Assembly: GCA_016793875.1 (NCBI GenBank)
Contig: JAEULG010000256.1
Location: 1 to 64,000, forward strand
DNA length: 64,000 nt
Direction: 5' to 3'
DNA from: Rhodospirillales bacterium
GTDB lineage: Bacteria; Pseudomonadota; Alphaproteobacteria; Rhodospirillales; Defluviicoccaceae
Position 1 is the stretch's first letter. Every line of letters begins with the position of its first letter. A program made the position numbers and the translations under genes. Under the pieces are notes generated by a model that was not told the origin of the DNA, searched no databases, and saw nothing but the letters and a program-made list of their open reading frames with translations. Below are positions 18,179-49,697 of the stretch, in pieces.

Positions 18179-19432
18179 TCAGACGTTGATCGTCGTCAGT
18201 TCGACCGCCGTCCGCTTGCCCTCGACGACGACAATACCGGTGTCGCTTACGAAGTAACGCTTGCGATCCTCTTCGAGATCATAGCCGATCGTCGTGTCCG
18301 CCGGGATCTTCACGTTCTTTTCCAGGATGCAGCGCCGCAGCTTCGACCGCCGGCCGATATCACAGTTGTCGAAGATGATCGACTCGTGAACCTCGGCGCC
18401 GGAGTGGATGTAGACGTGCCGGCCGATGACGGAGTTCTTCACCAAGCCGCCGGAGACGATGCAACCGCCGGCGAGGACCGAGTCGATCGCCTGGCCGCGC
18501 CGGTTATCCTCGTCGAAGGCGAACTTCGTCGGTGGATCGGAATATCCCGAGGTGCGCAGCGGCCATTCCCGGTTGAAAAGGTTGAGCGCGGGCGTGATCG
18601 CGCGCAGGTCCATATTGGCTTCGTAGTAGGCGTCAAGGGTGCCGACGTCGCGCCAATACGGCTCCTTGCCCGCGGGCTCTCCCGGGATGGTGTTGGTCAT
18701 GAAGTCGTAGGCGAACATCTCGGCCCGGCCGATCGCCTTGGGCAGGATGTCCTTGCCGAAGTCGTGACTGCTGTTGGGGTCCTGCTGGTCTTCCTCGACC
18801 AGGCGCAGCAGCATGTCGGTGGAGAAGATGTAGTTGCCCATCGACGCGTAGACCATGTCCGGATTGCCCGGCATGGTCGGCGCATCGGCCTTCTTCTCGT
18901 GGAAACCGATGATGCGGTTGCCGCTGGTGGTTTCGATGACGCCGAACTCCTTGGCGAACTTCTTCTCCACCGGAATCGCGGCGATCGTGACGTGGGCGCG
19001 CTTCTGCTCGTGGAATTCGATCATATCGCGGATGTTCATCCGGTAGATGTGATCACCACCAAAGACCGCGACGACGTTCGGCGCCGACTGCTCGATCAGG
19101 TTGATGTTCTGGTGGATCGCATCGGCGGTGCCGCGGTACCAGTCCTTGCCTTCCGAGCGCATCTGCGCCGGCACCGGCACGATGAACTCGCTCTTCAGCA
19201 ATCCGCCGAGGCGCCAGCCGTCACTGATGTGCTGCAACAGCGACTGGCTGCGGAACTGGACGACGACGTAAATCGAGTGGATGCCCGAGTTGATCAGGCT
19301 GCTGAGTACGAAGTCGACGATCCGGTATTTGCCGCCGAATGGGACCGCCGGTTTGGCACGCTCCTTGGTGAGCGGGTAAAGGCGCGTTCCCTCGCCGCCC
19401 GCAAGCACGAAGGCCAGAACCTTGAGTTGCAT
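18179..19432 (-). CDS. glgC: Glucose-1-phosphate adenylyltransferase
   Basis: A 417-residue ADP-glucose pyrophosphorylase making ADP-glucose, the glycogen-synthase donor. The nucleotide site GGEGTRLYPLT is at residues 12–22, followed by KERAKPAVPFGGKYRIVDF. YRGTADAI and the FGGDHIYRM block are typical, as is the C-terminal left-handed helix with IHSGAEVHES. A strong AAGGGAAAGGGGG ribosome site precedes the ATG at 19432; longer in-frame sequence upstream is not needed. glgA and glgP lie 26 kb away, across the polysaccharide locus. The enzyme is usually regulated allosterically. Confidence 0.97.
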   Translation of the reverse strand: MQLKVLAFVLAGGEGTRLYPLTKERAKPAVPFGGKYRIVDFVLSSLINSGIHSIYVVVQFRSQSLLQHISDGWRLGGLLKSEFIVPVPAQMRSEGKDWYRGTADAIHQNINLIEQSAPNVVAVFGGDHIYRMNIRDMIEFHEQKRAHVTIAAIPVEKKFAKEFGVIETTSGNRIIGFHEKKADAPTMPGNPDMVYASMGNYIFSTDMLLRLVEEDQQDPNSSHDFGKDILPKAIGRAEMFAYDFMTNTIPGEPAGKEPYWRDVGTLDAYYEANMDLRAITPALNLFNREWPLRTSGYSDPPTKFAFDEDNRRGQAIDSVLAGGCIVSGGLVKNSVIGRHVYIHSGAEVHESIIFDNCDIGRRSKLRRCILEKNVKIPADTTIGYDLEEDRKRYFVSDTGIVVVEGKRTAVELTTINV

Positions 19433-19572
19433 TAGCGCACCCCCTTTCCCTTTTGTTGATGGGTTACACCGGTCTGGTCTTGTAGCATTCCGGCGGGGAA
19501 CCGGCAGTGTTCTTTTTTTGCGCCGCAAGGGCGACACCGGCGCATGCGTCGGCGCAACCTCACATCGAGGGG

Positions 19573-19890
19573 TCAATTGCCCCGGAGACGGGGCACGTAG
19601 CAGCCTTCGCCGAGCCCGACGAAGTGGACATCGAGATCCGGATGAACGATCGGGTCGCCGCTCTCGTCCGGTTCCAGGTTGCGCTCGGCAACGTAGGTCT
19701 GATTGTCGGTCGCATGCATCAGCACCCGGTACCAGGGTTTGTCCTTCGGCGGCCGGCTGGGCGCCATCTCCTCATACCAGGCCTCGGTGCCGCAAAAGCA
19801 GGGATCGGCATCGATGATCACGCCGCGGTAGTTGAACAGCTTGTGCCGGACGATTTGTCCGACGCCGAATCTGGCAACGACGGTAGGCAC
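19573..19890 (-). CDS. hspQ: Heat shock protein HspQ
   Basis: A protein of about 105 residues of the HspQ/YccV-like family, which binds hemimethylated DNA in vitro, affects DnaA stability and acts as a Lon specificity factor in enterobacteria. Family blocks are FGVGQIVRHKLFNYRGVIIDADP, PWYRVLMHATDNQTYVAE and the acidic NLEPDESGDPIVHP (given here as separate short blocks). No ATG precedes the conserved part closely; the GTG at 19890 is my choice, and a longer frame reaches 20031. It is divergent from the acyl-CoA synthetase gene. Confidence 0.85.
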   Translation of the reverse strand: MPTVVARFGVGQIVRHKLFNYRGVIIDADPCFCGTEAWYEEMAPSRPPKDKPWYRVLMHATDNQTYVAERNLEPDESGDPIVHPDLDVHFVGLGEGCYVPRLRGN

Positions 19891-20023
19891 CGCAATGCAA
19901 CCCGGAAATCCTGACGATGGCGGACCCTTTAGCACCGAAAGCGGGCGGATTTCCAGGGCTGGCGCATGCCAGCTGGACGTGTGTATGTTGATGCAAACCA
20001 AAAGGGATTCAGGGGAAACCGGC

Positions 20024-21553
20024 ATGGACATGGGCTCATTGCCAGCGCGGCATGGCCGCTATCGCGGCGAGCATCCGGCGTTGATCAGCGGCGGGCGACA
20101 GCTTAACTGGCGCGAATTCGATGCCGCCATCAACCGGCTCGCCAATGCTTTGCTGGCCGCCGGCCTGCGCAAGGGCGACAAGTTCGCAACCGTCCTGCCG
20201 AACTGCCAGGAACTCATGCTGGCGTACTGGGCCGGCGCCAAGACCGGCTGCGTCATCGTGCCGATGAGCCCGCTGCTGCAGGACAACGGGCTCGTCTCGC
20301 TATTGACTGACTCGGACGCGAAGCTGGTGCTCGGTCACGCCTCGTTCGCGGCCACGTTCGAGCGCATCCGCGACCGGCTGCCGCTGGTCAAAGCCGACTG
20401 CTGGATCCTGCTGGGCGCGGGCGGCGAGGAAGGGCCTGGCTTCCAGCCCTACGAGACCTTCATCGCCAGTGGCTCCACGGCGGCGCCCCCGGACGCCAGC
20501 CTGACCGATGCCGACGAGTTCAACATCATGTATTCCAGCGGCACCACCGGCCTGCCGAAGGGCATCGTCCACAACCATTACGTTCGGGCGATGTACTGCA
20601 TGATCTTCGCGTCGTCGTTCCGGATCACGCCGGAGAGCGTGGTGCTGCACGCCGGCTCGATCGTCTTCAACGGCTGCATGGTCGACCTGATGCCGTGGAT
20701 GTTCGTCGGCGGCACCTACGTCCTGCACGAGAGCTTCGATGCCGGTCGCGTCATCGCCGACATCGACCGCTACAAGGTGACCCACATCGTTCTGGTGCCG
20801 GCGCAGATCACCGCCATCCTCGATCATCCCGACTACGCGCCGGCGAAGCTGGCCAGCCTGGAGATGCTGCACAACCTCGGCGCACCGCTGCACCGCTGCA
20901 TCAAGGAGCGCATCAATGCCGAACTGCCGGGCCGCTTCTATGAACTCTACGGCCTCACCGAAGGGTTCATGACCGTTCTCGACAAGCACGATTCCATCCG
21001 CAAGCTGGGCTCGGTCGGCTGTCCGCCGCCGTTCATGCAGATCAGCATCCGCCGGGACGACGACAGCGAGTGCGCACCGGGGGAAGTCGGCGAGATCTGC
21101 GGCAGGAGTCCCTGCCTGATGCCGGGCTATTACAAGCGCCCCGACCTCACCGCCCAGGCGATCCGCGACGGCTGGCTGCACACCGGCGATGCCGGCTACC
21201 TCGACGAGGAGGGCTACCTGTTCCTCGTCGATCGGATCAAGGACATGATCATCACCGGCGGCGTTAACGTCTATCCGTTCGACATCGAGAAAATCATCGC
21301 CAGCCATCCGGAGGTGCGCGAGGCGGCGGTATTCGGCGTGCAGGACGAGAAGTGGGGCGAGGTGGCGGTTGCGGCGGTGACGCTGCGCGATGGCGCGCAG
21401 TCAAGCGCAGCGGAGCTGGTGGAGTGGACCAACGCCCGTGTCGATGCCAAATTCCAGCGGATCAAGGACGTGATCGTCTACGATGAGTTTCCACGCAATG
21501 TCGCCGGCAAGACCCTGAAGCGCGAGATGCGGAGTTCCTATCATCGGGAGTAG
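20024..21553 (+). CDS. AMP-dependent acyl-CoA synthetase/ligase
   Basis: A 509-residue class I adenylate-forming enzyme that activates a carboxylic acid to its acyl-AMP and then thioesterifies it to CoA. The P-loop [11 protein letters not shown] is at 170–180, YELYGLTE is the A5 motif, and [15 protein letters not shown] is A7. The catalytic Lys496 is in [10 protein letters not shown]. The start at 20024 is supported by AGGGGAAA upstream. The substrate is unknown; the sequence resembles medium/long-chain or crotonobetaine-type CoA ligases. It is followed 43 bases later by an SMR exporter gene with no obvious functional link. Confidence 0.88.
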
Positions 21554-21952: not shown

Positions 21953-22630
21953 TCAAGCGCCCGACGAGAGCGTGCGAGCGAGCCAGCGGTACAACTCAGG
22001 CTCGGCGAAGGCGGCATCGGCGGTGCGGACGTGAGCACCGGCGTCGGGCAGCGCACCCAGGCGGTAGGGCCTGGCGATAACGGTGTCGTTGCCCTGGGTG
22101 CGGGCGATGACGTCGCGCGAGCCGGCGGTGAGATAGCCGACCTCGTCGTCCTCCGCCCAGGCGACCCACATCGGCAGGTGGGCGAGTTCCGGCAACCGCT
22201 CCGGCGGCTCGCAGGCGCCGCAGACGGAGACCAGCGCGGCAAAGCGGCGGGGCGCGTGCAACGCGGCGCAGAACGTCCCGACGCCGCCCATGCTGAAGCC
22301 GGCGATGACGAGACGCTGCGGGTCGGCTACGCCGCCGGCCACCATCGCGTCGATCAGCGCGTCGAGTCCTCCCAGCACGTCGGGATCGCACCAGCGGCAA
22401 TCGGCGGGGCACTGCGGCGCCACCACCTGGAAGGCGAATCCGGCGAGGGCAGGGGGCGATCCGCTGCGCAGCTTCGGCAGGCCCCATCGCGCGACCCGAT
22501 GCAGATCCGCACCTCCCGCGCCGCGCTCGCCGACGCCGTGCAGGAACACGATCGTGGGCGGCGGACCGCCTGCGGGCTGGATATCGGCCGGCAGCAACAG
22601 GCAGGAGCGGTCATGCCGAAAGTCGATCAT
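21953..22630 (-). CDS. Alpha/beta hydrolase (phospholipase/carboxylesterase type)
   Basis: A 225-residue alpha/beta-fold hydrolase. The oxyanion-side HGVGERG follows the strand TIVFLHG (residues 26–36), the nucleophile elbow is GFSMGG with Ser113, an acidic residue lies in WAEDDEVG, and the catalytic His is in DAGAHV. The pattern resembles PHB depolymerase-like or dienelactone-hydrolase-like esterases. The substrate is unknown. It follows the glucan-phosphatase-like gene by 40 bases on the same strand, so the two are probably co-transcribed. Confidence 0.8.
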   Translation of the reverse strand: MIDFRHDRSCLLLPADIQPAGGPPPTIVFLHGVGERGAGGADLHRVARWGLPKLRSGSPPALAGFAFQVVAPQCPADCRWCDPDVLGGLDALIDAMVAGGVADPQRLVIAGFSMGGVGTFCAALHAPRRFAALVSVCGACEPPERLPELAHLPMWVAWAEDDEVGYLTAGSRDVIARTQGNDTVIARPYRLGALPDAGAHVRTADAAFAEPELYRWLARTLSSGA

Positions 22631-22670: not shown

Positions 22671-23315
22671 TCATTCCCGGCTCGGATCAAGCCGGCTGCG
22701 GGGAGCGGCACGGCCGTTGAGAAATGCCGCGCGAATGGTCTCTGCCTCGGCCTGCAGCCAATGCATCTGCGGGTCGTGTTCCTCCGCCTGCTGCGACAGG
22801 TAGTAGGCCCGGACCATGATGTTCTCGCGCAAAGCGTTGACCAGATCGACGCGGCAGCCATGATACGCCTCGAAAGACGGATCCGACTGCGGCCGGGACG
22901 ATTTCAGCAGCAGCATCGCAACGTCGGCCGGCTGCATTTCGATGAAGGTGAAGTAGCCGAGCGCGGTCAGCGGCGCACGGTTGCAGCCCGCGGTACAGTA
23001 GAGATAGACGCGATGGCCTGCATCGAGCAAATCGTGCAGGCAGGCAACCGCCTGCGGCAGGTTGCGCCGCTGGTCCGGCGGGTCGAAGTCGAGCATCGGC
23101 GTGTTCACCATGGCCAAGTCCAGCGCTTCGCCATGGGCGCGTAAGGCATCCCAGTCGATGCCGAAGGCCTCGTGGCAGGCGCTGCTTTGCAGCGAGAGCA
23201 ACGCGGTTGCCCCGGTTCCGTCGCGGATCCGCCCGACGTCATCGGTCGTCATCGGGCATGAGCCGATCAGCAGATCGTGCCGGACCTCATTCCAGTTAAG
23301 CGTCCATTCCCACAT
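22671..23315 (-). CDS. Dual-specificity phosphatase resembling plant glucan phosphatases (SEX4/LSF2-like)
   Basis: A 214-residue cysteine phosphatase. The catalytic loop is CTAGCNRAP with Cys107 and Arg113, matching the CTAGLGRAP/CSAGLGRAP type of plant starch phosphatases rather than common bacterial PTPs. The general-acid loop is LDFDPPD (Asp76/Asp78), close to the plant DFDP motif, and RNLPQAVACLHDLL fits the following helix. The N-terminal RHDLLIGSCPMTTDDVGRI matches the entry segment of that family. In plants these enzymes remove phosphate from starch. No carbohydrate-binding module is fused. With glgC 3 kb away, a role on glycogen phosphate is inferred. Confidence 0.75.
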   Translation of the reverse strand: MWEWTLNWNEVRHDLLIGSCPMTTDDVGRIRDGTGATALLSLQSSACHEAFGIDWDALRAHGEALDLAMVNTPMLDFDPPDQRRNLPQAVACLHDLLDAGHRVYLYCTAGCNRAPLTALGYFTFIEMQPADVAMLLLKSSRPQSDPSFEAYHGCRVDLVNALRENIMVRAYYLSQQAEEHDPQMHWLQAEAETIRAAFLNGRAAPRSRLDPSRE

Positions 23316-26895: not shown

Positions 26896-29136
26896 ATGGA
26901 AGACAGACCGAACTTCTCCGTTGGGAGCCCGCTGGATCGCATGTCGGAGGTTCTCCCGGGGGGCGGGACGTTCAGCCTGGAGGAGCTGCTGCGCACCCTG
27001 CGGCGGAGGATGTGGCTGATCCTGACGATCATGATGGTCGGCACGCTGCTGACCGCTGCCGTCTCGATCATGCTGCCGTCGCGCTACACGGCCGTCGCCA
27101 AGGTGCTGGTCGCCGACAAGAGCCCCGAGGGACCCGATCTGAACGCGGCGGTACGCGGTCTGCCGCCCGACGTCGCCTTCATGAGCAGCCAGGTCCAGGT
27201 GGTTGCCTCGCGCAATCTGGCGGCGATCGTCATCGACAAGCTCGGTCTGGAATCCGACCCGGAGTTCAACGACACGCTGCAGCCGCCAACGCTGCTCAAG
27301 CGTATCACGGACGCCCTGCCCACCGAGTGGTTCCGGCAGAAGCTGGGCATGCCGTCCGCCGTTCTCGATCCTGAGCTCGCCAAGCGTTTGCAACGCGAGG
27401 AGGTCATCGACACCTTCCTCGAGAACATGTTCACCGAGGTCGTCGAGGCGAGCCGGGTCATCGACATCTGGTTCACCTCCGAAGACCGCGAGAAAGCCTC
27501 GCGGATAGCCAATGCGATCTCCGACACCTACATCGACCAGCATCTGGAGAACCAGTACCAGACGATCCGCCGGACGATGGCTTGGCTCAATGACCGGGTC
27601 GCCGGGCTGCGTCAGGAGGTCAAGACCGCCGACGATGCCGTCGAGAAGTTCCGTTCGGAGAAGGGGCTGCTCAAAGGGACCGGCGGCGAGATGCTGAACG
27701 AACAGCAGATCTCGGAACTCAGCTCGCAGCTGGTGCTGGCCCGCTCGCAACGGGCGGAAAGCGAGGCGCGGCTGTCGCAGGTCAGGGGCCTCGCCCGTTC
27801 CGGGGGTACCGCCAGCATCGCCGAAGTCGTCAACTCGCCGCTGATCTCGTCGCTGATCGCGCAGGAGACGGAAGTGAAGCGGCGGATCGCCCAGTACTCA
27901 CAGGAGTATGGCGAACGCCATCCGCTGCCGATCAATGCCAAGGCGGAACTGCAGGATCTGCAGGCCAAGATCGGCGTCGAGGTCAACCGTGTGGTTCAGA
28001 GCCTGCAGAACGAAGTTGTGGTGGCGCGGGCGCGTGAGCAGTCGCTGCAACGCGGTCTCGAACAGTTCGGCACGCAGGTTTCGAAGTCCAACAAGGACGA
28101 GGTGACGTTGCGGGCGTTGGAGCGGGATGCCGAAGCGGCTCGCTCCACCCTCGACAACTTCATGCAGGAGGCGCACCAGCTCAACGCGCAGGACACGCTG
28201 CGGGCCCAGCAAGCCGACGTCACGCTGATATCGTACGCGCCGATCCCGCCGGAAGCGGCGTTCCCCAAGCGCAAGCTGATGGTGCTGCTGGCGATCGTCG
28301 TCTTCGGCCTGATCGGGATCGTGGTGGCGCTGATCGTCGATCAGTTCGACTCGGGCTTCCGCAGCTCGGAGCAGGTGCAGAACACGCTCGGGGTTCCGGT
28401 CCTCGGCCTTGTGCCCGCGTTGAAGGGGGCAGGCCGCAAGGGGCGGGTTCCGGGGCGGTACGTGCTCCAGCAACCGACGTCGTCCTTCGCCGAGGCCATC
28501 CGCCGGATCCACGCAAAACTGCTTCAGGATCCTTCGGTGCGCACGGTCCAGATCACCTCGGCGGAGCCGAGCGAGGGCAAGACGACCGTCTCGCTTAATC
28601 TTGCCCAAGTGGCCGCCCGCCTCGGCGGCCGTGTTCTGCTGATCGATACCGATTTCCGCCGCTCGGAGATCGCCGACCTGCTGCGGCTGCGCAAGTCGCC
28701 GGGGCTGATCGACATCCTGACCAAGCGGGCAAGCTTCAGCGACGTGGTGCAGGCCGGCGAGGGTAGTCCCGACATCGTGGTTGCCGGCGGCTTCGAATCA
28801 CAGAGCTCGGAAATGCTGGTGCTGCGGGATCTTCCGCACCTGCTGAAGCAGGTGCGTGACCGCTACGACCTGATCATCATTGACGCACCGCCAGTGATCT
28901 CGCTGGTTGACGCCGCGGTGGTGGCAGGCCAGGTCGACCGGACGATTCTGGTGGTGAAGTGGGCTGGCACGCGGCGGTCCGTGGTCGGTCACGCGGTGAA
29001 CGAGGTCAACAGTGCCGGTGGCACGCTCGGCGGCGTCATCCTGACCAAGGTCGACGTAAAGCGGCACTCGCTTTATTCGTTCGGCGATTCCGGCCAGTAC
29101 CACGGCCGTTACAAGAAGTACTACGACGTGGCGTGA
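26896..29136 (+). CDS. Polysaccharide co-polymerase/tyrosine autokinase (Wzc/GumC-like)
   Basis: A 746-residue inner-membrane protein controlling polysaccharide chain length and export. The N-terminal Wzz domain begins with FSLEELLRTLRRRMWLI and a first helix near 35–57; a long periplasmic coiled-coil region follows; the second helix is near 461–480. The cytosolic BY-kinase domain has Walker A AEPSEGKTT (556–564), Walker A' LLIDTDFR (582–588) and the Walker B-like LIIIDAPPV. The C-terminus carries a Tyr cluster (YSFGDSGQYHGRYKKYY), the usual autophosphorylation site. It is the first gene of the locus. Confidence 0.93.
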   Translation: MEDRPNFSVGSPLDRMSEVLPGGGTFSLEELLRTLRRRMWLILTIMMVGTLLTAAVSIMLPSRYTAVAKVLVADKSPEGPDLNAAVRGLPPDVAFMSSQVQVVASRNLAAIVIDKLGLESDPEFNDTLQPPTLLKRITDALPTEWFRQKLGMPSAVLDPELAKRLQREEVIDTFLENMFTEVVEASRVIDIWFTSEDREKASRIANAISDTYIDQHLENQYQTIRRTMAWLNDRVAGLRQEVKTADDAVEKFRSEKGLLKGTGGEMLNEQQISELSSQLVLARSQRAESEARLSQVRGLARSGGTASIAEVVNSPLISSLIAQETEVKRRIAQYSQEYGERHPLPINAKAELQDLQAKIGVEVNRVVQSLQNEVVVARAREQSLQRGLEQFGTQVSKSNKDEVTLRALERDAEAARSTLDNFMQEAHQLNAQDTLRAQQADVTLISYAPIPPEAAFPKRKLMVLLAIVVFGLIGIVVALIVDQFDSGFRSSEQVQNTLGVPVLGLVPALKGAGRKGRVPGRYVLQQPTSSFAEAIRRIHAKLLQDPSVRTVQITSAEPSEGKTTVSLNLAQVAARLGGRVLLIDTDFRRSEIADLLRLRKSPGLIDILTKRASFSDVVQAGEGSPDIVVAGGFESQSSEMLVLRDLPHLLKQVRDRYDLIIIDAPPVISLVDAAVVAGQVDRTILVVKWAGTRRSVVGHAVNEVNSAGGTLGGVILTKVDVKRHSLYSFGDSGQYHGRYKKYYDVA

Positions 29137-45241: not shown

Positions 45242-45430
45242 CGGGCGGCGTGTCTTCTGGCAGCTTGTGCGAGGATGGCGGCGAACCGAATACCTCGGCG
45301 CCGAAATCCCTTGTTCGTGGACCTGCCGTCAGCGGCGCGCTATACGCTTCGACAGAATGACCAGCTTGGCGTGCCAGTAGTAAGGCTGTGACGTGCCCGC
45401 CACGCGATGTGCATCAGGGAGAGCACCAGG

Positions 45431-47956
45431 ATGAAACTCGAGGGGACCTCTGCCGCCGCCAAAGGCACGGACTTTGAGCTGCGCGTCGTCGCCGAAGAAG
45501 GCGGAATGGACGTCGACAGCCTGATCCGCAGCTTCTACTTCCACTTGGGATGTACGCTGGCGAAGGATCAGTACACCGCCACCAACCAGGACCGCTATCA
45601 GGCGTTGGCACTCGCGGTCCGCGACCGGCTGGTCGGCCGCTGGATTCAGACGCAGCAGGGCTATCACAAGCAGAACGTCAAGCGGATCTGCTATCTCTCG
45701 CTCGAGTTTCTGATCGGTCGGGCGATGGGCAACAACGTCATCAACCTGTTGCTCGAAGACACCTGCCGCGAGGCGATGAAGCAGATCGGCCTCGACTGGG
45801 ACGTGCTGCGCGATGTCGAGAGCGACGCGGCTCTCGGTAACGGCGGCCTCGGCCGTCTCGCTGCCTGCTTCCTCGACTCGATGGCGACGCTGCGGCTGCC
45901 GGCGATCGGCTACGGCATCCGCTACGACTACGGCATCTTCAAGCAGCACATTGAGAACGGCTACCAGGTCGAGGAGCCGGACAACTGGCTGCGCTACGGC
46001 AACCCGTGGGAGGTCGTGCACCCGGAACTCTCGTTCATGGTCAATTTCGAGGGCCGGGCCGAGCCGCGAAGGGTAAACGGCGTCACCCACTGGGACTGGG
46101 TCGGCACCCGCCCGATCATCGGCATTGCCTATGATACCCCGATCGTCGGTTACGGCACATTCAACGTCAACAACCTGCGCCTGTGGTCGGCGCGGGCCAC
46201 CGACGAGTTCCACTTCGGCGATTTCAGCCGCGGCTCCTACGTCGAGGCGGTGGAAGACAAGCTGATGGCGGAGAACCTGACCAAGGTGCTCTACCCCAGC
46301 GATGCGGTCTACGCCGGCCGCGAACTGCGCCTGCGCCAGCAGTATTTCTTCGTCTCCTGCTCGGTGCAGGACATTATCCGCCGCTTCAAGGTCGACAATG
46401 ACGACTGGCTGAAGTTCCCGGACAAGGTGTTCGTGCAGATGAACGACACCCATCCGGCGCTGGTGGTCGCCGAGCTGATGCGGCTGTTCCTCGACAAGGA
46501 GGACGTCAACTGGGACAAGGCGTGGGAGATCACCGTCGCCTCCACCGGCTATACCAACCACACCCTGCTGCCGGAGGCGCTGGAGCGGTGGCCGGTGAGC
46601 ATGTTCGAGCGGCTGCTGCCCCGCCACCTGCAGATCATCTACGAGATCAACAGCCGCTTCCTGCGTAAGGTGGCGACCCGCTACCCGGGCGACTTCGACC
46701 GGCTGAAGCGCATGAGCCTGGTGCAGGAGGAGCCGGAAAAGGCCGTCCGCATGGCCAATCTCGCCGTCGTCGGCAGCTGCTCGACCAACGGCGTCGCGGA
46801 GTTGCACTCGCGCCTGCTGCGCGAAGGCCTGATGAGCGACTTCGCCGACTTCTTCCCGGAGCGGTTCAACAACAAGACCAATGGCGTGACGCCGCGCCGC
46901 TGGCTGCTGAAGGCCAACCCGCGGCTGTCCTCGCTGATCCGCGCCAAAATCGGCGATGGCTGGATCAACCATCTTGATCAGCTTCGCGGTCTGGAGAAGT
47001 TCGTCGGCGACGCCGGCTTCCGCCAGCAGATCCGTCAGATCAAGCACGCGAACAAAGAAGCACTGGCCGAGTACATCAAGCGGGAGATCGGCTTGACGGT
47101 CAATCCCGCCTCGATGTTCCAGGCGCAGGTCAAGCGCATCCATGAATACAAGCGCCAGCTGCTGCTTGCGCTCTACATCATCGTGCTGTACGACCGGCTG
47201 AAGGCCAATCCGGATCTGGACATCGTTCCGGTGACCTTCATCTTCGGCGGCAAGGCCGCTCCCGGCTACTACATGGCGAAGCTGATCATCAAGCTGATCC
47301 ATCAGGTTGCCAGTGTTGTCAACTACGACCCGGAAGTCCGGGACAAGATCAAGGTAGTCTTCCTGCCCGACTACCGCGTCTCACTGGCCGAGAAGATCAT
47401 TCCGGCGGCTGACCTCAGCGTGCAAATCTCGACGGCCGGCATGGAAGCTTCCGGCACTGGTAATATGAAATTCCAGATGAATGGCGCGCTCACCATCGGC
47501 ACCCTTGACGGCGCCAACGTCGAGATCAAGGAAGAGGTGGGTGACGAAAATATCTTCATCTTCGGATTGACCACAGAGCAGGTGGATGAGCTGCGGCCGC
47601 ACTACAATCCGCGTCGCTTCTATGATAGCGATGAGGAAATTCGTCGCGCGGTCGATCTCATCAACAACGACTTCTTCAGCTTGAACGAGCCTGGCATCTT
47701 CCGCCCGATCGTCGCAAACCTGCTGGAGAATGGCGATTACTACATGAACCTGGCAGATCTGCGCAGCTTCATCGAGATGCAGGGCCAGGTCGAGGCGCTC
47801 TACCGTGATCCGGAAGCGTGGAGCAAAAAGGCGATCTATAACATCGCCCGCTCCGGCAAGTTCAGTTCCGACCGGACCATCGCCGAGTATGCTGACGACA
47901 TCTGGGAGGTGAAGCCCGTGGAGGTCGTCGCTTCGGAGGGCAAGCGCCGCTCGTAG
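45431..47956 (+). CDS. glgP: Glycogen/alpha-glucan phosphorylase
   Basis: An 841-residue GT35 enzyme that phosphorolyses alpha-1,4-glucan to glucose-1-phosphate. The PLP Lys680 is in TGNMKFQMNG, with the surrounding ISTAGMEASG and GALTIGTLDGANVEI. The N-terminal SLEFLIGRAMGNNVINL and DAALGNGGLGRLAACFLDS blocks are conserved. Length matches the family (about 830). It starts 189 bases after the last polysaccharide gene and is followed by glgA, so the two form a glycogen block. Confidence 0.97.
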   Translation: MKLEGTSAAAKGTDFELRVVAEEGGMDVDSLIRSFYFHLGCTLAKDQYTATNQDRYQALALAVRDRLVGRWIQTQQGYHKQNVKRICYLSLEFLIGRAMGNNVINLLLEDTCREAMKQIGLDWDVLRDVESDAALGNGGLGRLAACFLDSMATLRLPAIGYGIRYDYGIFKQHIENGYQVEEPDNWLRYGNPWEVVHPELSFMVNFEGRAEPRRVNGVTHWDWVGTRPIIGIAYDTPIVGYGTFNVNNLRLWSARATDEFHFGDFSRGSYVEAVEDKLMAENLTKVLYPSDAVYAGRELRLRQQYFFVSCSVQDIIRRFKVDNDDWLKFPDKVFVQMNDTHPALVVAELMRLFLDKEDVNWDKAWEITVASTGYTNHTLLPEALERWPVSMFERLLPRHLQIIYEINSRFLRKVATRYPGDFDRLKRMSLVQEEPEKAVRMANLAVVGSCSTNGVAELHSRLLREGLMSDFADFFPERFNNKTNGVTPRRWLLKANPRLSSLIRAKIGDGWINHLDQLRGLEKFVGDAGFRQQIRQIKHANKEALAEYIKREIGLTVNPASMFQAQVKRIHEYKRQLLLALYIIVLYDRLKANPDLDIVPVTFIFGGKAAPGYYMAKLIIKLIHQVASVVNYDPEVRDKIKVVFLPDYRVSLAEKIIPAADLSVQISTAGMEASGTGNMKFQMNGALTIGTLDGANVEIKEEVGDENIFIFGLTTEQVDELRPHYNPRRFYDSDEEIRRAVDLINNDFFSLNEPGIFRPIVANLLENGDYYMNLADLRSFIEMQGQVEALYRDPEAWSKKAIYNIARSGKFSSDRTIAEYADDIWEVKPVEVVASEGKRRS

Positions 47957-48224: not shown

Positions 48225-49697
48225 ATGTATATTGTAATGGTTTCGGCGGAGCTGGCCCCGGTGGCCAAAGTCGGAGGGCTTGCCGACGTCGTGTTCGGCC
48301 TCAGTCGCGAGCTGGAGGTCAGAGGCCACGCGGTCGAGATCATCCTGCCCAAGTACGACTGCATGTGGCATGACGAGATCTGGGGACTGCACAAGATATG
48401 GGAGAATCTGTGGGTACCCTGGTATGGCTCCGGCATCTCCTGCTCAGTGTGGTTCGGCTTCGTTCATGGACGGAAGTGCTTTTTTATCGAACCACACAGC
48501 CAGGACAACTTCTTCCATCGCGGGTCATTCTATGGCTTTCATGACGATCCGTTGCGCTTTGCCTTCTTCTGCAAAGCGACGATGGAGTTCATACTGAAGT
48601 CAAACAAACGCCCGGATATCATTCACTGCCACGACTGGCAGACCGGCCTTGTCCCCGTTCTTCTGTATGAAATCTATGCACGCCTGGGCATGGACCGGCA
48701 GCGTGTGGTCTATACCATCCACAACTTCAAGCATCAGGGGGTCACCGGTGAAGCCGTGCTGTGGGCGACTGGCCTCTGCCGCCCCGAGTACTACTTCCAT
48801 CACGACCGGCTGCTGGATAACTTCAATCATACGGCCATCAACCTGATGAAGGGCGGCATCGTTTATTCCAACTACGTCAACACCGTCTCGCCGCACCACT
48901 CTTGGGAGGCTCGCTTTTCCGACCAGGGCTACGGCTTGGAGCAGACGCTCGCCATCCATCACTACAAGTTCGGCGGCATTCTCAACGGCGTCGATTACGA
49001 CGTATGGAATCCCGAGATCGATCGATTCATTCCGTCGCACTACAACGTCTGGAACGTCGAGGGAAAATACGGCAACAAGGACGCGCTGCGCGACCGCTTG
49101 TGGCTCAGGAAGGAATATAAGCCCATCGTGGCCTACGTCGGCCGCCTGGATGCGCAGAAGGGAGTCCACCTCATCCAGCATGCGATGTTCTATGCGCTGG
49201 AGCGCGGGGCGCAGTTCGTGTTGCTCGGGGCCGGCGGCGATCGCGGCATCAACAATCACTTCTGGCATCTCAAGCACTATCTCAACGACAACTCCGACTG
49301 CCACATGGAAATCGGCTTCAACGAGCAACTCGCCCATCTGATCTATGCCGGGGCGGATATCTGCGTCGTTCCCAGCCTGTTCGAGCCGTGCGGCCTCGCT
49401 CAGATGATCGCCATGCGCTATGGGTCGGTTCCGGTGGTGCGGGCCGTCGGTGGTCTCGTCGATACGGTATTCGACCGCGACCATTCCGACCGGCCGCTGG
49501 AGGAGCGCAACGGCTACGTCTTCCACGACGCCGACTTTCGTGGCATCGAATCGGCGCTCAGCCGGGCAATCGGCCTGTGGTTCGACTACCCCAAGGAGTT
49601 CCGCCGGCTCATCTCCAATGCCATGTCCGCCGATTACTCCTGGGGCCAGTCAGGCGGCCACTACCTCGCCATCTACGAGGCCACTCGCTGCCGCTAG
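48225..49697 (+). CDS. glgA: Glycogen synthase (ADP-glucose)
   Basis: A 490-residue GT5 enzyme that extends alpha-1,4-glucan from ADP-glucose. The ADP-glucose loop KVGGLADV is at 15–22 (usual KTGGLADV), the C-terminal catalytic block FEPCGLAQM is at 386–394. GSFYGFHDDPLRFAFFCKA is a variant of the segment found in plant and cyanobacterial starch synthase III-type enzymes, so it may belong to that branch, an inference. It lies 268 bases after glgP; glgC is 29 kb away. Confidence 0.95.
   Translation: MYIVMVSAELAPVAKVGGLADVVFGLSRELEVRGHAVEIILPKYDCMWHDEIWGLHKIWENLWVPWYGSGISCSVWFGFVHGRKCFFIEPHSQDNFFHRGSFYGFHDDPLRFAFFCKATMEFILKSNKRPDIIHCHDWQTGLVPVLLYEIYARLGMDRQRVVYTIHNFKHQGVTGEAVLWATGLCRPEYYFHHDRLLDNFNHTAINLMKGGIVYSNYVNTVSPHHSWEARFSDQGYGLEQTLAIHHYKFGGILNGVDYDVWNPEIDRFIPSHYNVWNVEGKYGNKDALRDRLWLRKEYKPIVAYVGRLDAQKGVHLIQHAMFYALERGAQFVLLGAGGDRGINNHFWHLKHYLNDNSDCHMEIGFNEQLAHLIYAGADICVVPSLFEPCGLAQMIAMRYGSVPVVRAVGGLVDTVFDRDHSDRPLEERNGYVFHDADFRGIESALSRAIGLWFDYPKEFRRLISNAMSADYSWGQSGGHYLAIYEATRCR

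What the first reader, a model, noticed from the sequence alone, without database searches (positions are those of the whole stretch)
22671..23315. Bacterial homologue of plant starch phosphatases close to glycogen genes
The catalytic loop CTAGCNRAP, the DFDPPD acid loop and the RHDLLIGSCPMTTDD entry segment resemble SEX4 and LSF2 rather than ordinary bacterial tyrosine phosphatases. glgC is 3 kb away, and glgP and glgA are in the same window. Bacterial glycogen phosphate removal is poorly described, so this could be a glycogen-dephosphorylating enzyme. An alpha/beta hydrolase gene follows it by 40 bases.
Basis: partly seen in the sequence, partly recalled or inferred. Interest (0 to 1): 0.6.

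Follow-up and report, generated by a model that had tools for sequence, protein, structure and literature searches.

The report
Bacterial relative of starch-dephosphorylating enzymes
A gene in a glycogen-making alphaproteobacterium encodes a protein whose closest relatives of known structure are the plant and animal enzymes that strip phosphate from starch and glycogen, a class reported in 2009 to be absent from bacteria; whether the bacterial protein does that job has not been tested.

Summary
ORF 22671-23315(-), 214 aa, has all three quoted motifs. In PDB sequence searches its best matches are the glucan phosphatases SEX4, LSF2, LSF1, then laforin (single sequence 2e-18 to 8e-8, next phosphatase 0.05; nine-sequence profile 9e-29 to 5e-16, next 2.5e-7). 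A confident AlphaFold model (pLDDT 90) ranks the same proteins first. A tree joins bacterial, plant and laforin sequences against nine other DSPs (97/94). Published work (PMC2714694) calls glucan phosphatases absent from bacteria and unlikely there. The family is small: 8 of 11 genomes of the window's family plus one genome of another family; none in class and phylum samples. It differs from plant enzymes: no carbohydrate-binding module, a DUF2934-like C-terminal hairpin, and Asn instead of Gly in the catalytic loop. One genus-mate lost the catalytic Cys. The glycogen link is suggestive only: all nine carriers have glgC, but it lies nearby in just two, and no glucan dikinase domain was found in this genome. 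Best reading: a real bacterial branch of the glucan-phosphatase lineage, probably acting on phosphorylated alpha-glucan (about 0.5); activity untested.

The parts
22671..23315 (-). Bacterial glucan-phosphatase-like dual-specificity phosphatase, 214 aa
23324..23329 (-). Putative ribosome-binding site AGGGGA, 8 nt before the ATG
   Evidence: sequence
23238..23282 (-). N-terminal recognition segment RHDLLIGSCPMTTDD (residues 12-26), matching LSF2 RDELIVGSQPQKPED, SEX4 RPDLIVGSCLQTPED and laforin LPNIWLGSCPRQVEH
23073..23090 (-). Acid loop DFDPPD (residues 76-81): D76 aligns with LSF2 D161 (general acid); F77 aligns with aromatic-channel F162
   Evidence: D and F invariant in all nine homologues
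22977..22997 (-). Catalytic loop CTAGCNR (residues 107-113): C107 nucleophile and R113, with N112 where LSF2, SEX4 and laforin have Gly
22716..22838 (-). C-terminal helical hairpin (residues 160-200), DUF2934-like in 4 of 9 family members; lies within the structural alignment to LSF2 that reaches its C-terminal (CT) motif
21953..22630 (-). Alpha/beta hydrolase (Abhydrolase_2/Esterase), 40 nt downstream; not found next to the phosphatase in the relatives examined
18179..19576 (-). glgC, glucose-1-phosphate adenylyltransferase (TIGR02091 above cut-off)
19573..20031 (-). YccV-like protein next to glgC; the set phosphatase, YccV-like, glgC recurs in G008
45407..47956 (+). glgP, carbohydrate phosphorylase
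48225..49697 (+). glgA, starch/glycogen synthase

Best explanation
The gene encodes a cytosolic dual-specificity-type phosphatase of the glucan-phosphatase lineage (SEX4/LSF1/LSF2/laforin). The inferred mechanism is the usual Cys-dependent one: C107 attacks the phosphate, R113 holds it, D76 protonates the leaving sugar hydroxyl and then helps hydrolyse the phosphocysteine. The most likely substrate is a phosphate monoester on an alpha-1,4-glucan chain (glycogen or maltodextrin), guided to the active site by the N-terminal aromatic segment (W2, W4), F51 and F77. The C-terminal DUF2934-like hairpin packs on the domain where the plant CT motif lies. Shown here: homology, fold, conserved catalytic residues, narrow distribution, a genome with glycogen genes. 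Inferred: activity, substrate and physiological role.
For: phmmer against PDB: SEX4 2e-18, LSF2 7e-18, LSF1 9e-14, laforin 8e-8, next DSP 0.05. Nine-member profile: LSF2 9e-29, SEX4 3e-24, LSF1 1e-23, laforin 8e-17 and 5e-16, next Tk-PTP 2.5e-7, with the N-terminal segment aligning only to glucan phosphatases. hhalign: plant glucan phosphatases 3.6e-32 over 154 columns at 31% identity, generic DSPs 1.4e-12 at 14%. Model pLDDT 90; VIA Z LSF2 23.9, SEX4 23.1, laforin 22.2 (4rkk) and 19.3 (4r30), then Tk-PTP 19.0; Foldseek also ranks LSF2, SEX4 and laforin first. Tree: bacterial + plant + laforin 97/94 against nine other DSPs. Aromatic-channel F162 is F77 and W136 is F51, both invariant; D161, C193 and R199 equivalents kept. 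All nine carriers have glgC against 117 of 297 genomes in the order sample. The genome has glgC, glgA, glgP, glgX, malQ and three GlgB-type matches over cut-off.
Against: N112 replaces the Gly of the CxAGxGR loop in all nine. LSF2 channel residue Y135 is not kept, and Y83/Y85 would fall before the bacterial N-terminus. SBS2 residues are not conserved; of SBS3 only E268 matches (E190). No known carbohydrate-binding module was detected. No PPDK_N (GWD/PWD-type) domain was found in the 99%-complete genome, so the source of glucan phosphate is unknown. Gene neighbourhoods are mostly unrelated to glycogen. By genus the glgC association is 4 of 4 against 56 of 111, p about 0.06, and carriers are phylogenetically clustered. 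G003 has lost the catalytic Cys. Forcing the family together with bacterial/archaeal DSPs costs 12.7 log units but the AU test does not formally reject it (p 0.11).
Confidence: 0.5

Rival explanations
1. It belongs to the same lineage but acts on a different phosphorylated carbohydrate: a sugar phosphate, phospho-oligosaccharide, capsular or cell-surface polysaccharide.
For: No glucan dikinase domain found in the genome; channel and surface sites only partly conserved; an exopolysaccharide-type chain-length/kinase gene is in the window at 26896-29136 (by inspection of the translation only); neighbourhoods vary.
Against: The preference for alpha-glucan phosphatases is consistent in every comparison; all carriers have glgC.
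Confidence: 0.22
2. It is a protein phosphatase (Tyr or Ser/Thr) whose similarity to glucan phosphatases reflects shared ancestry only.
For: The fold is DSP (PF00782); other DSPs act on proteins; no known glucan-binding module detected; grouping with bacterial/archaeal DSPs is disfavoured but not formally rejected (p 0.11).
Against: The N-terminal recognition segment aligns only with glucan phosphatases and the best tree separates it from nine other DSPs, 97/94.
Confidence: 0.15
3. It works mainly as a glucan-associated, weakly active or non-catalytic scaffold, as LSF1 is described to do.
For: G003, the single-contig genome, keeps a full-length homologue at 60% identity with HDTSSINR in place of [HY]C[TS]AG[ILC]NR and no second copy; the non-Gly at P-loop position 6 recalls LSF1 (CTTGFDR). 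PMC13011383 describes LSF1 as catalytically inactive and regulatory.
Against: Eight of nine members keep C, D and R; Asn at this loop position is, from memory, found in active RNA triphosphatases (HCTHGFNR), so it need not abolish catalysis.
Confidence: 0.1

Closest known systems
LSF2 (Arabidopsis, 4kyq), phosphoglucan phosphatase
   Same: Best profile and fold match (9e-29; Z 23.9, 177 residues, 28% identity); single DSP domain without a CBM; D161/F162 and C193/R199 equivalents; alignment reaches LSF2's C-terminal motif
   Different: Asn for G198; Y135 not kept and Y83/Y85 fall before the bacterial N-terminus; SBS2 absent, SBS3 only E268; DUF2934-like tail; bacterial, no plastid
SEX4 (Arabidopsis, 3nme/4pyh)
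   Same: Best single-sequence match (2e-18), 30-31% identity, same DSP core, channel Phe equivalents
   Different: SEX4 has a CBM48 and CT motif; the bacterial protein has no CBM
LSF1 (Arabidopsis, 8j5d)
   Same: Profile match 1.4e-23; also non-Gly at P-loop position 6 (Asp)
   Different: LSF1 is much longer (529-residue chain in 8j5d) and described as catalytically inactive (PMC13011383)
Laforin (human, 4rkk/4r30)
   Same: Profile match 8e-17 (4r30) and 5e-16 (4rkk); GSCP motif; same clade in the tree
   Different: Laforin has an N-terminal CBM20 and a longer recognition loop; only 23-27% identity
DUF2934 (PF11154)
   Same: C-terminal 40 residues match in 4 of 9 members (best 0.0015)
   Different: Weak match; the window protein itself does not reach the threshold; DUF2934 function unknown

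Membership tests
Glucan phosphatase lineage (SEX4/LSF1/LSF2/laforin), by descent | Closer in sequence to glucan phosphatases than to any other DSP of known structure | tested here: met
Glucan phosphatase lineage (SEX4/LSF1/LSF2/laforin), by descent | Forms a clade with them against other DSPs | tested here: met
   97/94 with nine outgroup DSPs; outgroup set is small and partly fragmentary, and the alternative with bacterial/archaeal DSPs has AU p 0.11
Glucan phosphatase lineage (SEX4/LSF1/LSF2/laforin), by descent | DSP fold, best structural match among solved DSPs | tested here: met
   laforin 4r30 (Z 19.3) and Tk-PTP (19.0) are tied, LSF2, SEX4 and 4rkk stand above
Glucan phosphatase as an enzyme | Catalytic Cys, Arg and general-acid Asp | tested here: met
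   C107, R113, D76; 8 of 9 homologues keep all three
Glucan phosphatase as an enzyme | CxAGxGR active-site loop with Gly at position 6 | tested here: not met
   Asn in all nine; LSF1 also departs (Asp). So it is filed here as a homologue, not as a proven glucan phosphatase enzyme
Glucan phosphatase as an enzyme | Aromatic channel (LSF2 Y83, Y85, Y135, W136, F162) | tested here: inconclusive
   F162 as F77, W136 as F51; Y135 not kept; Y83/Y85 fall before the N-terminus, W2/W4 nearby
Glucan phosphatase as an enzyme | A CBM (CBM20 or CBM48) or, as in LSF2, surface glucan-binding sites | tested here: inconclusive
   No known CBM in Pfam scans; SBS2/SBS3 mostly not conserved, but these are also mostly lost in the active algal OsttaDSP (PMC5779698)
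Glucan phosphatase as an enzyme | Releases phosphate from starch or glycogen | not testable with these tools
   needs an assay
DUF2934 | Pfam PF11154 match above cut-off | tested here: inconclusive
   4 of 9 members match, best E 0.0015; query itself below threshold

The most novel reading that the evidence does not exclude
A true bacterial glucan phosphatase: glycogen in some alphaproteobacteria carries phosphate esters and is edited by a SEX4/LSF2-lineage enzyme, without a plant-type glucan dikinase, which would revise the published view that such enzymes are absent from bacteria.
Probability: 0.42. Interest if true: 0.85.

Novelty: new variant of a known kind. Interest (0 to 1): 0.6.

Why it matters
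The 2009 survey PMC2714694 states that laforin and SEX4 are absent from bacteria and archaea and that a bacterial glucan phosphatase is unlikely; a 2025 paper, PMC13011383, still lists bacteria among glycogen makers without laforin and asks whether their glycogen is phosphorylated. A bacterial lineage member makes the question testable in a simple host and bears on where the plant and animal enzymes came from.

Tried and rejected
Viral relatives: none among 9 candidate stretches. Plasmid relatives of the protein, or of LSF2: none. Class and phylum samples (385 and 398 genomes) at E <= 1e-8 gave only weak matches (4.6e-11 to 4.5e-9) on other DSPs, including gamma proteins that carry a further large domain after the DSP domain. 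The order sample with the profile gave the same nine carriers plus two weak DSP-like matches, 3.6e-9 and 2e-7. L004 (Erysipelotrichaceae) from the genome-contig scan matched only 40 residues. Conserved operon with the hydrolase: rejected; in G008 the next gene is an unrelated SDR. DUF2934 as a glycogen marker: one stand-alone DUF2934 gene heads a glgB-glgX-malQ cluster in this genome, but the Mesorhizobium plasmid relative lies among stress genes, so not argued. The own-genome second DSP (C14) was left out of the tree as a long branch. Organism: genus-mate G004 matches a GenBank MAG titled Rhodospirillales bacterium Prado228; identity with the glycogen-accumulating genus Defluviicoccus (PMC9041414) was considered, not established. 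Of relatives' neighbourhoods only genes within about 10 kb were looked at, and not every ORF was scanned.

Full report
Observation. Window 22671-23315(-) encodes a 214-aa protein with a putative ribosome-binding site AGGGGA. glgC is 3.1 kb away, glgP and glgA are in the window, and an alpha/beta-hydrolase gene starts 40 bases downstream.

Sequence placement. A single-sequence search of all PDB chains gives SEX4 2e-18, LSF2 7e-18, LSF1 9e-14 and laforin 8e-8; the next phosphatase is at 0.05. The window protein and eight homologues, 49-60% identical to it, were aligned (A1). Their profile gives LSF2 9e-29, SEX4 3e-24, LSF1 1e-23, laforin 8e-17 and 5e-16, then Tk-PTP 2.5e-7. The N-terminal segment (residues 5-60) aligns only with glucan phosphatases in that search. 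Profile-profile comparison: 3.6e-32, 31% identity over 154 columns against SEX4/LSF1/LSF2; 1.4e-12, 14% over 123 columns against three generic DSPs.

Tree. With nine other DSPs as outgroup, bacterial, plant and laforin sequences form one side of a branch with support 97/94. Inside that group the order is unresolved: bacterial + plant without laforin has 70/66, and bacterial + laforin, or plant + laforin with the bacterial group beside them, are not rejected (AU p about 0.26). Forcing the bacterial family together with the bacterial/archaeal DSPs costs 12.7 log units but is not formally rejected either (p 0.11). Outgroup rows are few and some are fragments. The SEX4 and laforin PDB sequences used carry a Cys-to-Ser mutation at the catalytic position.

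Structure. AlphaFold2 on A1 gave mean pLDDT 90.4 and pTM 0.87. VIA-align ranks LSF2 (Z 23.9, 28% identity over 177 residues), SEX4 (23.1), laforin 4rkk (22.2), laforin 4r30 (19.3) and Tk-PTP (19.0); Foldseek also puts LSF2, SEX4 and laforin first. The alignment to LSF2 reaches residue 201 of the model and residue 279 of LSF2, inside the LSF2 C-terminal motif.

Active site and glucan contacts. C107, R113 and D76 correspond to LSF2 C193, R199 and D161. LSF2 channel residues, listed in PMC5779698, are Y83, Y85, Y135, W136 and F162. F162 is F77 and W136 is F51, both invariant; Y135 is not kept; Y83/Y85 fall upstream of the bacterial start, where W2 and W4 (W4 invariant) lie nearby. The P-loop Gly198 is Asn in all nine. 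From memory, Asn occurs at that position in active RNA triphosphatases, so loss of catalysis does not follow. SBS2 residues are not conserved; of SBS3 only E268 matches. The Pfam domain DUF2934 matches the C-terminal tail in 4 of 9 members (best E 0.0015). In genus-mate G003 the loop reads HDTSSINR, so the catalytic Cys is lost though the sequence is otherwise conserved.

Distribution. The protein was found in 8 of 11 genomes of the window's family and in one genome of another family among 297 of the order. Samples of 385 class and 398 phylum genomes had none above the weak DSP level. A pattern scan of genome contigs (84,980 species) returned one close relative (L003), which is the same contig place as G004; that scan only reaches close relatives, and other phyla were not sampled with the profile, so a wider spread is not excluded.

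Link to glycogen. All nine carriers have glgC, against 117 of 297 genomes in the order. Ignoring relatedness p is 2e-4, but carriers cluster, and by genus it is 4 of 4 against 56 of 111, p about 0.06. In the window and in G008 the phosphatase, a YccV-like gene and glgC are neighbours. In the other loci examined, the neighbouring genes I scanned were of other kinds: RtcB, NAPRTase, Fic, BacA, MgtE, ribosomal S6, LysR, GST and others. The genome carries glgC, glgA, glgP, glgX, malQ and three GlgB-type matches over cut-off. No PPDK_N domain, the domain of glucan water dikinases, was found in the 99%-complete assembly although 13 of 14 control genomes have one. If glycogen is phosphorylated here, another route must supply the phosphate.

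Novelty. PMC2714694 concludes that glucan phosphatases are absent from bacteria and unlikely there. Searches of the library found no paper describing a bacterial one; the library is limited to open-licence papers, so prior work may exist elsewhere.

Judgement. Descent from the glucan-phosphatase lineage is well supported (my estimate about 0.9). The claim that it dephosphorylates glycogen is an inference, about 0.5.

Noticed in passing
L007 (G003:C1:3235598-3236203): Homologue with catalytic Cys replaced (HDTSSINR), full length otherwise: a natural pseudophosphatase in the single-contig genome of the genus.
   Followed up: partly
G000:C216:202-7394 (L043): Stand-alone DUF2934 protein (135 aa, Lys/Ala/Glu-rich tail) just upstream of glgB, glgX and malQ on the same strand.
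   Followed up: partly
G000:C161:2454-3893 (L042): 479-aa open frame with three DUF2934 matches; function unknown.
   Followed up: no
G000:C216, C189, C165: Three GlgB-type matches over cut-off; the C189 frame is 1250 aa with two GlgB_N and two CBM48 matches.
   Followed up: no
G000 whole genome: No PPDK_N domain match in a 99%-complete assembly, though 13 of 14 control genomes have one.
   Followed up: no
G008:C422:10-1050 (L017): glgC frame carries one in-frame TAA in the search; the contig end is near, so it may be an assembly effect.
   Followed up: no
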